Assembly: GCF_900155395.1 (NCBI RefSeq)
Contig: NZ_LT699726.1
Coordinates: forward strand, 1-64,000
Length of the DNA stretch: 64,000 nt
From: Merdibacter massiliensis
Lineage (GTDB): Bacteria > Bacillota_I > Bacilli_A > Erysipelotrichales > Erysipelotrichaceae
Direction of reading: 5' to 3'
Shown in pieces: positions 14,238-35,046 of the stretch; within the stretch, counting starts at the first letter, position 1; the number at the start of each line of letters is the position of its first letter. The notes under the pieces were generated by a model that had not been told where the DNA came from, made no database searches, and saw nothing but the letters and a program-made list of their open reading frames with translations. A program made the position numbers and the translations under genes.

Positions 14238-15335
14238 TTAATATGACAGTTTCTTGATTTTTTCCCAAGTAAACTGTGGATCACCAAAATGTCCATAGCA
14301 GGATGTCTTTGAATAGATTGGTTTGCGCAGATCCAATTCTTTTAAGATATTTGTTACAGAGAAATTAAAATTCTTACGAATGATCGCTAATAGTTCTTCA
14401 TCACTTTTCACTCCGGTTCCAAATGTATCTACACATAAGGAAACTGGCTCGCTTTTACCAATCGCATAAGCTACCTGTACCTCACAGCGTTGTGCCAATC
14501 CGTTTGCAACGATATTCTTTGCAACATAACGGCAATAATACGCGGCACTGCGGTCCACTTTGGTCGGATCTTTTGATGAGAAGCATCCTCCGCCAATTCT
14601 TCCCATACCTCCATAAGTATCACAGACGATCTTACGGCCAGTTGTTCCAGAATCACCAAAGCTGCCGCCTACAACAAAACTGCCGCTTGGATTGATCAAA
14701 AACTTTGTATTTTCATCGATCATCTCTTTTTCGATGCTTGGCAAGATCACTTCATTCATGACCAATTCACGGATTTCTTCCTGTGTTGCCTGCGGTGCAT
14801 GCTGTGTTGATACCACGATTGTATCAATACGCTGCATCTTTCCATCTTTATATTCCACAGATACCTGTGTTTTGCCATCTGGACGCAATAATGGATTGTT
14901 GCGACGCACTTTTGTAAGCTGGCGCGCTAACTTATGCGCATAATAAATTGGTGCCGGCATATACTCATCGCTTTCATCGCAAGCATAGCCGAACATGATT
15001 CCCTGATCTCCTGCCCCAATTTCTGCATCTTGATGGTTTACAGCATTATGAATCTCACTGGATTGCTTATTGACTTTTACCATCACTGTATAGTCTTCTT
15101 CATAACCGATCTTACGAATAACCGATTTTGCAATTGTTTCATAATCAATGTGTGCTTTTGTATCTGCTTCGCCATAAATCAATACAAAATCATCTTTGAT
15201 CGTTGCTTCAACGGCCATATTAGAATAAGGATCTTGACGCAATGCTTCATCTAAAATAGCATCGGCAATAGAATCACAGATTTTATCGGGATGCCCTTCG
15301 GTGATGCTTTCTGAAGTAAAAATATAATCTTTCAT
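14238..15335 (-). CDS. metK: S-adenosylmethionine synthetase
   Basis: Makes SAM from methionine and ATP. Motifs are SESITEGHPDK at the N-terminus, GAGDQGIMFGYA (ATP and K+ site), GSFGDSGTTGRKI and GGGCFSSKDPTKVDRSA. I start at ATG 15335 (MKDYIFTSES) because GGAGG lies 5 nt upstream; an in-frame ATG at 15389 adds 18 non-conserved residues. The leader contains a CCGCGC/GCGCGG hairpin (15352-15371). An IS110-family element now lies between this leader and the S-box-like riboswitch at 16980-17114, so normal SAM feedback is probably disturbed. Confidence 0.97.
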   Translation of the reverse strand: MKDYIFTSESITEGHPDKICDSIADAILDEALRQDPYSNMAVEATIKDDFVLIYGEADTKAHIDYETIAKSVIRKIGYEEDYTVMVKVNKQSSEIHNAVNHQDAEIGAGDQGIMFGYACDESDEYMPAPIYYAHKLARQLTKVRRNNPLLRPDGKTQVSVEYKDGKMQRIDTIVVSTQHAPQATQEEIRELVMNEVILPSIEKEMIDENTKFLINPSGSFVVGGSFGDSGTTGRKIVCDTYGGMGRIGGGCFSSKDPTKVDRSAAYYCRYVAKNIVANGLAQRCEVQVAYAIGKSEPVSLCVDTFGTGVKSDEELLAIIRKNFNFSVTNILKELDLRKPIYSKTSCYGHFGDPQFTWEKIKKLSY

Positions 15336-15351
15336 AAATTCCTCCATTTCC

Positions 15352-15371
15352 CCGCGCCTAAGGTCGCGCGG
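15352..15371 (-). promoter_or_regulatory. GC-rich hairpin in the metK leader
   Basis: CCGCGC and GCGCGG pair around an 8-nt loop, ending 6 bp upstream of the metK Shine-Dalgarno sequence. It could affect initiation or mRNA stability; no known riboswitch class was recognised in this segment. Confidence 0.4.
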
Positions 15372-15428
15372 ACACAAATATTTCATCAATAAATCTCACA
15401 CGTCTCATTTTTTCGTGTTACCATATAA

Positions 15429-15612
15429 GAGAGGTGGTACACTACAGAGCACGTGGAGGTGAGTAGGAATTCTACTCAATTGAATATCCTGTATATATAT
15501 AAGTTGCTGTCATCATCTCAAGCACAAATAAGTAGGACTTTGAGCCTGGACACTTATGATTGTTCAATCAACTGTTGTCGATTCGCTTTGATGACAGTCA
15601 ATGCCACCTCTC
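15429..15612 (+). ncRNA. Candidate bridge RNA region of the IS110 element
   Basis: The segment is closed by GAGAGGTGG (15429-15437) and CCACCTCTC (15604-15612). It contains a hairpin GAGTAG/CTACTC (15461-15477) and a long-range pairing CTGTCATC/GATGACAG (15507-15514 with 15590-15597). In IS110-type elements such as IS621, a bridge RNA of about 180 nt is encoded upstream of the recombinase and pairs with target and donor DNA. Position, length and nested pairing agree. The guide loops were not assigned. Confidence 0.55.
15494..15521 (-). promoter_or_regulatory. Candidate outward promoter in the IS110 element facing metK
   Basis: TTGAGA (15516-15521) and TATATA (15494-15499) are 17 bp apart on the minus strand and point out of the element towards metK. 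The AT palindrome makes chance matches easy, so this is tentative. Confidence 0.3.
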
Positions 15613-15636
15613 CTTTTGCATGAAAGGAGTTTTTTT

Positions 15637-16893
15637 ATGGTAATGAAAATCGTTCGTTTCAACTGTTGTGGCATGGATGTTCACAAAAACCTGGTTGTCG
15701 CTACTATTGGGATCACCGATAGAAAGACCAACATTACAGAATACTTCCAACGATCCTTCTCCACTTTAAACTCCGACCTATACCGTTTAAAGGATTGGCT
15801 GCGATCTCATCACTGTTCTGATGTCTGTATGGAGTCTACCGGTAAATACTGGATCCCGATCTTTAACATTCTTGAAGATGAGACCAATGTCCATTTAACT
15901 CACCCCAAGTATGTCAAAGCCATCAAAGGCAAGAAGACAGATAAGAAAGATTCCAAATGGATCTGTGATCTCTTCAAACATGATCTGATCAAGTTTTCGT
16001 TTATCCCTCCCAAAGAAATTCGGGAGATGCGTGAGATCGCACGTTACAGATACAAACTGGTCTGCATGCGTTCTTCAGAACGGAATCGTTATCAAAACTG
16101 TATGACCATTTCTAATGTCGGTCTGGCTTCTGTTGTTTCAGATCCTTTTGGCAAGACGGCTTCCAACATTATGAAAGAAGTCATGAAATCCAATGTGATC
16201 GATGATGACAAGATCCTAAAGCTCGTTCACAAAAACTGTAAGAACAAAGATAAGATACTGGACTCTCTTCATGGCTATCACATTGAATCGGATCAACGAT
16301 TCAAGATGGAAAAATCTTTGGATCATATGGAATATTTAGATCAGCTCATTGATTCATGCGAAGTGGAATTGATTAAGCGTGCGTATCCTTTTCGCAGATC
16401 TTTTCAGCACATCACACAAATAAAAGGAATCAGTGCTTTATCTGCTATTCTTATCATCTCTGAAATAGGAATTGATATGTCTCAGTTCGAATCCGACAAA
16501 CAGCTTGTCAGTTGGGCCGGACTTTCTCCTGCCAACAACGAGAGTGCCGGCAAGAAAAAGTCAGTCCGTATCTCAAAAGCTGGACAGTATCTCAAACCTC
16601 TGCTTGTCCAATGTGCTTTATCGGCCATCAAAGATAAGACATCTTATTTTGGAAGAAAGTATTCCAATATCAAGAAACGACGAGGTCATAAGAAAGCAAT
16701 CATTGCGATCGCACGCATGATGCTGGTCAGCATCTACCACATGATCCTTACAGGAGAAGAATTTAATCCATGTGACCATGAATCCTTTATGGATCCAAAA
16801 CCAAACGCCAATCCTTCACTTACAGTTGAAAAAGCATTGAACTTTTTAAAACAATCTGGCATTGATATTTCTTCTATTCCAGTCAACTTATAA
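15637..16893 (+). CDS. IS110-family transposase (DEDD recombinase)
   Basis: A 418-residue transposase. The N-terminal RuvC-like DEDD domain shows CGMDVHKNLV, CMESTGKYW and KTDKKDSKWICDLF. The C-terminal domain has IKGISALSAILIISEIG and LVSWAGLSPANNESAGKKK, with the serine expected for the second catalytic site. These enzymes use a bridge RNA to recombine DNA without inverted repeats. I start at ATG 15637 because AAAGGAG lies 7 nt upstream; an ATG at 15601 falls inside the RNA region. The gene looks intact. Confidence 0.93.
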   Translation: MVMKIVRFNCCGMDVHKNLVVATIGITDRKTNITEYFQRSFSTLNSDLYRLKDWLRSHHCSDVCMESTGKYWIPIFNILEDETNVHLTHPKYVKAIKGKKTDKKDSKWICDLFKHDLIKFSFIPPKEIREMREIARYRYKLVCMRSSERNRYQNCMTISNVGLASVVSDPFGKTASNIMKEVMKSNVIDDDKILKLVHKNCKNKDKILDSLHGYHIESDQRFKMEKSLDHMEYLDQLIDSCEVELIKRAYPFRRSFQHITQIKGISALSAILIISEIGIDMSQFESDKQLVSWAGLSPANNESAGKKKSVRISKAGQYLKPLLVQCALSAIKDKTSYFGRKYSNIKKRRGHKKAIIAIARMMLVSIYHMILTGEEFNPCDHESFMDPKPNANPSLTVEKALNFLKQSGIDISSIPVNL

Positions 16894-16979
16894 ATTTTTT
16901 CGATATCTTTTACCTCCTGTTTTTAAGTCGGCCCTTTTTGCGCATTTTTATTCACACTTATCTCCTTCCCTTTACCATA

Positions 16980-17114
16980 AAAAAATCTTCTCGCGATAGA
17001 GAAGATGATGTTTTTCTATCTCTCTTATCGCTGTCAGCAGTACCACCTTATAAGATGCATCTTACAGGTTGGTGTGGGGTCTAGGAGCTGACTCTCTCAC
17101 CCATCTCTTGATAA
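16980..17114 (-). promoter_or_regulatory. S-box-like (SAM-I) riboswitch with terminator, formerly of metK
   Basis: Reading the minus strand, TTATCAAGAGA (17104-17114) opens a P1-type stem closed by GATAAGAGA (17021-17029). Inside lie GGGT/ACCC and a long ACCAACCT...AAGGTGGT hairpin around a TAAGAT/ATCTTA palindrome. An expression platform follows: ATCTTCTC/GAGAAGAT with a T7 run (16980-17006), which can compete with the P1 3' strand (GCGATAAGAGA against TCTCTATCGC). The opening and closing motifs agree with S-box leaders, while the core GAGGGA/GGCCC differs, so this is a variant. AAGGTGGTAC also resembles a T-box motif, which I rank second. It points at metK across the IS110 element. Confidence 0.6.
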
Positions 17115-17155
17115 TAGCAGATATATTAAAGCACACTCTATTTTAAATTGCAACT

Positions 17156-34480: not shown

Positions 34481-35046
34481 GCTTTATGACCTCCCTTTGA
34501 AATGCAGGCGGCTGCTGCCGCCTATGTAGAACCGGACAGCAGAACAGAATGAAGACCGGGGAGAGATAAAACAATCCTCTTGTTTTCATTGGCCCGTCCT
34601 GCTGTACGGCTCATATTTCAAAGCGTTCCTATTTGTCCTCGACACCCCGGAACACTGCGGGAAGTCATCAAACGGCTGGCAGCTCACCAGCTCCACGGGG
34701 AATCTCACCCCTCGCGTGGTTCTCACGCAACCGCCCCCATTGCCTGCGACGGATCACGGCAGCAAACCGCTTCAACGCTCGGACGTTAGGCTGGACGGGA
34801 GTATCGCTCCGCTGCTGGTCATGGCCGTACCGGGAGCCGCCCGGTACTGGCAGCCTGCTGTTTCTCGCTCCTTGCTGGGAAGAACAAACCAAAGACCTAC
34901 AATTTCTTTTTTCGGTGGTGTCTCGTTGTTTTCTCCCGGCAGATCACCGCGCAGCCGCTACCTGGGCTTTGGCTTTCGCCAAAACAGCGGGAATGTGCTT
35001 GATGAATGGGTATGCAGTTTTCAAGGTGCCGTGAGGCCATAAAAAG
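34481..35046. other. GC-rich stretch without a supported gene
   Basis: Several reading frames of 70-130 codons overlap here on both strands, but none has a recognisable domain, a good RBS or consistent codon use. It lies between the sigma-like copy 1 terminator and the toxin gene. It could hold a toxin promoter or a structured RNA, but I see no specific signal. Confidence 0.4.

What the first reader, a model, noticed from the sequence alone, without database searches (positions are those of the whole stretch)
15429..15612. Candidate bridge RNA in the IS110 element
The non-coding segment is closed by GAGAGGTGG/CCACCTCTC and has two inner stems. IS621 work shows that IS110 enzymes use an RNA of this size from this position to choose target and donor DNA. 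If the guide loops match 15418-15425/16972-16979 and their flanks, the reason for insertion in a metK leader would be readable.
Basis: partly seen in the sequence, partly recalled or inferred. Interest (0 to 1): 0.6.

Follow-up and report, generated by a model that had tools for sequence, protein, structure and literature searches.

The report
Jumping gene guided to start codons
This small jumping gene carries a guide RNA that appears to read a gene's ribosome-binding site and start codon, so it lands between the two (here in the essential gene metK) and brings a replacement ribosome-binding site, a targeting strategy I found described nowhere in the papers searched.

Summary
Twenty further copies in the same genome put the IS110-type element at about 15339-16959, not 15418-16979. 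All 21 copies lie just upstream of an ATG; 20 of those ATGs open ORFs of 50-501+ codons. The target's own Shine-Dalgarno (SD) lies beyond the right end, and the left end supplies a new one (GGAGG). In same-genus genomes the metK SD and ATG are contiguous.

The RNA (15429-15612) has a closing stem with strong compensatory covariation. One guide (15492-15500, UAUAUAUAU) reads the start codon plus spacer. Across 56 guide/target combinations its three variable bases match the junction 152/168 times (shuffled 77±5, maximum 97). The other target guide (GGAGGUGA) is itself an SD. A donor guide (GACACUU) covaries with the right end.

The design recurs in many Bacillota IS110 relatives. One sublineage whose guides lack SD and CAU inserts inside ORFs instead.

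Guide order is that reported for IS1111 elements, although the RNA lies upstream of the transposase as in IS110. Not shown: RNA expression, transposition, a match for the fourth guide, covariation of the SD guide. Preserved gene expression is inferred.

The parts
15333..15335 (-). Start codon of metK (CAT on +), read by the 3' target guide
   Evidence: MKDYIFTSESITEGHPDK... ORF starts here; same start in G001/G002
15336..15340 (.). Three spacer bases (AAA) and the TT at the crossover; left junction of the element. Core length (T or TT) not resolved
   Evidence: Junction alignment of 21 copies; frame of joined flanks in L181 counts TT once
15341..15345 (-). Shine-Dalgarno supplied by the element's left end (GGAGG in metK sense)
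   Evidence: Sequence; predicted anti-SD pairing about -12.6 kcal/mol
15341..15428 (+). Left end upstream of the RNA
   Evidence: Shared by the 21 copies
15429..15612 (+). Bridge RNA, closing stem 15429-15439 with 15602-15612
   Evidence: Fold z -2.7; compensatory covariation
15455..15462 (+). 5' target guide GGAGGTGA, an SD sequence complementary to the target's SD at the right junction
   Evidence: SD-like in most homologues; covariation not demonstrated
15492..15500 (+). 3' target guide TATATATAT, reads CAT-NNN-T (start codon plus spacer)
   Evidence: Covaries with left junction, 152/168 variable bases identical against 77 shuffled
15549..15557 (+). Donor guide GACACTTAT, matches the right end TTCACACTT
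   Evidence: NN of guide equals NN of right end in many lineages
15610..15629 (+). Terminator-like hairpin overlapping the RNA 3' end and the transposase RBS
   Evidence: 4 found in the region, 0.9 expected
15637..16893 (+). IS110-family DEDD transposase, 418 aa
   Evidence: PF01548, PF02371; NF033542 245 bits, cut-off 140
16894..16959 (+). Right end, terminates in TTCACACTT
   Evidence: Junction alignment
16960..16970 (-). Native metK SD (GGGAAGGAGAT in metK sense), now cut off from its start codon
   Evidence: Contiguous with metK ATG in G002
17022..17117 (-). SAM riboswitch of metK, upstream of the insertion
   Evidence: RF00162, 47.3 bits

Best explanation
The segment 15429-15612 encodes the bridge RNA (seekRNA) of an IS110-family element whose guides are set to bacterial translation-start regions. 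Shown by sequence: one target guide (UAU-NNN-U) reads the complement of the start codon plus the next three spacer bases; the second target guide (GGAGGUGA) is itself a Shine-Dalgarno sequence and complements the SD of the target; a donor guide reads the element's right end; the element sits between SD and start codon with its left end next to the ATG. Inferred: the transposase-RNA complex pairs with these sites and exchanges strands at the shared T(T). The gene loses its own SD but gains one from the element's left end (GGAGG-AA-NNN-ATG), so translation can continue, which makes most genes, even an essential one such as metK, tolerable targets.
For: All 21 copies at CAT-NNN-TT with an SD beyond the right end; 20 of 21 ATGs open ORFs of 50-501+ codons. 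Uninterrupted SD-ATG at metK in same-genus genomes. Guide and junction change together between the two copy groups, including mosaic copy L030, and across 56 combinations. Donor guide covaries with right end. Closing-stem covariation. Second element type in G050 with guide UAUAAUAAC at CATAATAAC before four different ORFs. Sublineage with other guides sits inside ORFs at sites its guide matches. The supplied leader has predicted anti-SD pairing as strong as native ones.
Against: No expression or transposition data. The SD guide shows no covariation with the right junction (p=0.11) and only weak preference over other RBSs (p 0.02-0.04). No convincing left donor guide. The window copy has one mismatch in the variable triplet. 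About 24 of 54 left ends in the clade supply no strong SD, so SD replacement is not universal. One of 21 copies opens only 8 codons.
Confidence: 0.88

Rival explanations
1. Ordinary bridge RNA without start-codon programming: insertions scatter over AT-rich DNA and only those upstream of genes survive selection.
For: Insertion inside genes is often lethal; a bias to intergenic DNA is expected.
Against: Position is exact to the base (between SD and ATG in 21 of 21), and the guide contains the matching CAU/SD and covaries with the spacer. The sublineage with other guides sits inside ORFs.
Confidence: 0.05
2. Guide-junction agreement reflects shared ancestry: the junction bases belong to the element end and simply co-evolve with the loop.
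For: Group 1 copies share ATA and group 2 copies TTT at the junction; elements are related.
Against: Junction bases differ among copies with identical ends and guides (window AAA against ATA; CTT against TTT). Native SD-ATG spacing only comes out right if the bases belong to the target. Unoccupied SD-like-AATATATG sites exist. L030 separates guide from background.
Confidence: 0.04
3. The segment is a cis-acting leader that controls transposase expression rather than a guide RNA.
For: A terminator-like hairpin overlaps the transposase SD at 15610-15629.
Against: Leader control does not predict that loop bases vary together with insertion-site bases and with the right end. Both roles may coexist.
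Confidence: 0.02

Closest known systems
IS621 and its bridge RNA (IS110 group; PMC11208160, PMC11208158)
   Same: DEDD recombinase with RNA upstream of the CDS, two loops, paired guides for target and donor, about 180 nt
   Different: IS621 targets REP elements with a CT core. Here the target is SD plus start codon with a T(T) core, and the guide order relative to the transposase strand is opposite.
ISEc21 seekRNA (IS110 type; PMC11187229)
   Same: RNA upstream of the transposase; natural retargeting by guide changes in a relative
   Different: Reported order there is bottom-strand match 5' and top-strand match 3'; here it is reversed. ISEc21 targets a conserved part of an IS3 transposase gene.
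IS1111-group seekRNAs such as ISEc11 (PMC11187229)
   Different: Their RNA lies downstream of the transposase and they have subterminal inverted repeats; here it lies upstream and I saw no such repeats by eye.
Mobile elements that use harmless repeated sites, such as IS110 members in REP elements (from PMC11208160 and own knowledge)
   Same: Specific, repeated genomic sites
   Different: Here the site is inside the expression signal of genes, made tolerable in about half of lineages by an SD carried on the element end.

Membership tests
IS110 family (DEDD recombinase) | DEDD N-terminal domain and Transposase_20 C-terminal domain | tested here: met
   PF01548 76.9 bits, PF02371 70.4 bits; NF033542; D14, E66, D102, D105 invariant
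IS110 family (DEDD recombinase) | RNA is expressed, binds the recombinase and is needed for recombination | not testable with these tools
   needs experiment
IS110 group (as opposed to IS1111) | Guide RNA in the left end, upstream of the transposase | tested here: met
   15429-15612 precedes the CDS at 15637
IS110 group (as opposed to IS1111) | 5' guide matches top strand, 3' guide complements it (ISEc21, IS621) | tested here: not met
   5' guide complements the top strand at the right junction, 3' guide matches the top strand at the left junction (order)
IS1111 group | Guide RNA downstream of the transposase | tested here: not met
   RNA is upstream
IS1111 group | Subterminal inverted repeats of 7-17 bp | not tested
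   none seen by eye in the ends, no repeat search run
Bridge RNA | Conserved structured RNA across homologues | tested here: met
Bridge RNA | Target-binding loop with two guides matching target | tested here: inconclusive
   3' guide met by covariation; 5' SD guide complementary but covariation not shown
Bridge RNA | Donor-binding loop with two guides matching the element ends | tested here: inconclusive
   guide for the right end met; guide for the left end not found

The most novel reading that the evidence does not exclude
A widespread clade of Bacillota IS110 elements has bridge RNAs that read the cell's translation-initiation signal itself (SD plus start codon). Each genome thus offers very many targets, and in part of the clade the donor end carries a replacement SD so the host gene survives. 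RNA position is IS110-like while guide order is IS1111-like.
Probability: 0.8. Interest if true: 0.82.

Novelty: new variant of a known kind. Interest (0 to 1): 0.78.

Why it matters
Known bridge-RNA elements aim at repeats or at other mobile elements. This clade aims at a universal gene-expression signal and, in about half of its lineages including this one, brings its own SD, which would explain how it reaches 20 or more copies in a 2.5 Mb genome and sits at an essential gene. It makes the guide rules of these recombinases testable by natural variation: a three-base guide segment changes with the three-base spacer. It also combines IS110-type RNA position with IS1111-type guide order. For annotation, a gene's SD and riboswitch can be separated from its start codon by a whole IS.

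Tried and rejected
Rfam: no bridge RNA family hit at gathering score. Sigma-70 scan of the element: no more promoters than chance, 5 against 5.2, so the RNA promoter is unresolved. Spacing test between two SD-guide classes: not significant. Fixed-register SD-guide test: not significant. In one search the row for the window copy used a wrong right junction (-4.0 kcal/mol); corrected (-12.9). Left donor guide: only AAGU around the core could be matched, not accepted. Core length: left unresolved (T or TT). Search for an uninserted allele of L181's site among phages: no match. A conserved-pattern search of 392 genomes of the phylum found few further genomes; the pattern is narrow, so it is not a census. 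Literature: the searches returned no report of an IS110 element targeting start codons or SDs, but most subscription papers and all preprints are outside the library.

Full report
THE ELEMENT. The window lies in an unnamed 2.47 Mb genome with 21 near full-length copies of this IS: 10 at about 99-100% identity to the window copy (group 1, window included) and 11 at about 90% (group 2). Comparing their ends places the element at about 15339-16959. The transposase (15637-16893, 418 aa) is IS110-family with D14, E66, D102 and D105 invariant in nine homologues; its only relative among solved structures by sequence is IS621 (8wt6, E 1.5e-8).

THE TARGET. In all 21 copies the left end directly follows CAT, NNN, TT on the + strand, and the right end (TTCACACTT) is followed by an SD complement such as TCACCTCC. 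Read in the other direction this is SD, AA, NNN, ATG. In 20 of 21 copies the ATG opens an ORF of 50 to 501+ codons; the exception opens 8 codons. The window copy is at metK. In two same-genus genomes metK (97 and 94% identical) has SAM riboswitch, terminator, SD and ATG contiguous; G002 reads GGAAGGAGATCGGA-ATG. In the window GGAAGGAGAT and ATG (15333-15335) are separated by the element, and the SAM riboswitch (17022-17117) is 1.7 kb from its gene. Unoccupied SD-like-AATATATG sites remain in the genome, so the group 1 junction sequence also occurs as plain genomic DNA.

THE RNA. The segment 15429-15612 folds with z -2.7. In a plain MAFFT alignment of 37 homologues, the closing stem and the donor-loop hairpin are paired in 94.9% of cells (shuffled 73.2%, slid at most 42%), with 14 of 18 pairs changed on both sides. 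A terminator-like hairpin at 15610-15629 overlaps the 3' end and the transposase RBS.

THE START-CODON GUIDE. Group 1 RNA carries UAU-AUA-UA and sits at CAT-ATA-TT. Group 2 RNA carries UAU-UUU-UA and sits at CAT-TTT-TT or CAT-CTT-TT, the C being a G-U wobble. L030 has a group 1-like left end but a group 2 guide and a group 2 junction. The window copy itself sits at CAT-AAA-TT, one mismatch.

THE RULE IN RELATIVES. Relatives came from whole genomes of the order, GTDB genome contigs and IMG/VR contigs: Erysipelotrichaceae, Lachnospiraceae, other Clostridia, Streptococcus azizii and some bins with other labels. The left junction was taken from a conserved left-end box (CATT), not from the guide; four junctions with a shifted box were set by hand. 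Over 56 distinct guide/target combinations the three variable bases are identical 152 of 168 times, against 76.6±5.3 after shuffling (maximum 97 in 20,000); whole triplets agree in 42 of 56 against 5 (maximum 14); the first core base agrees in 55 of 56. About 17 further lineages read by eye follow the rule. One relative (L136) has CAC at this position in both guide and target, which would be a GTG start, but its flank is too short to test. Related elements are not independent, but neighbouring lineages carry different triplets (AGA, AGC, AGT, AAT, ATA, CAT, TAT, GTT), each matched.

OUT-OF-SAMPLE CHECKS. A second element type in G050, found by a conserved pattern outside the 3' guide, has guide UAUAAUAAC and sits at CATAATAAC before four different ORFs of 80, 458, 116 and 279 codons. 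In a sublineage whose guides lack SD and CAU (L124, L125, L181; 5' guide GCGUGGUGAG or GUGUGGUGAG, 3' guide AACACUU, AAUUCUU or AAAACUU), the left junctions are ACACTT, ATTCTT and AAACTT. In L124 and L181 the joined flanks are one open frame of 164 and 289 codons, so these copies are inside ORFs. Change of guide goes with change of target.

THE OTHER GUIDES. The 5' target guide is SD-like in nearly all lineages and complements the SD at the right junction, but covariation could not be shown. The donor guide GA-NN-CU(U/A)A matches the right end TCA-NN-CT(T/A) over many sequence classes. I found no convincing left donor guide.

ORDER OF GUIDES. Relative to the transposase strand the 5' guide complements the top strand and the 3' guide matches it. 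PMC11187229 reports this order for IS1111 elements and the reverse for the IS110-type ISEc21; IS621 also has the reverse order (PMC11208160). Here the IS1111 order occurs with the RNA upstream of the transposase, as in IS110.

CONSEQUENCE FOR THE HOST GENE. The left end supplies GGAGG five bases before the ATG. Predicted anti-SD pairing averages -12.4 kcal/mol for the supplied leaders, about -11 for the native ones and -2.5 inside the genes (window value corrected). In 30 of 54 distinct left ends of the clade the supplied leader pairs at -8 kcal/mol or better; the others, mainly Lachnospiraceae types, have only AAGGA further upstream. Preserved translation is therefore inferred, and likely only for part of the clade. 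How metK is transcribed now (read-through from the riboswitch promoter or another promoter) is not known.

MINI-ELEMENTS. Genome G059 holds three elements of about 175 bp with the same two ends but neither RNA nor transposase, again between an SD and three different ATGs, with spacers TTT, GTT and GCT. They look like non-autonomous passengers moved in trans (inference).

VERDICT. It is a new variant of a known kind: membership in the IS110 family is met by the protein, but the guide order reported for the IS110 group is not met.

Noticed in passing
L050, L059, L063 (G059), locus positions about 1360-1550: Three elements of about 175 bp with the left and right ends of this IS but no RNA or transposase, each between an SD and the ATG of a different gene: MITE-like passengers.
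   Followed up: partly
L124, L125, L181: Sublineage with naturally changed guides that inserts inside ORFs instead of at start codons.
   Followed up: partly
L220, L232, L240, L242 (G050): A second start-codon-directed element type with guide UAUAAUAAC in the same genome as the UAU/AAU-type copies; pattern count for G050 is 20.
   Followed up: partly
L238 (G050:C1:2056971): A copy with a rearranged left end: the guide region is intact but the usual left-end box is gone.
   Followed up: no
window 34693-34805 (-): Rfam pemK RNA hit just above its gathering score (38.3 against 34.8 bits).
   Followed up: no
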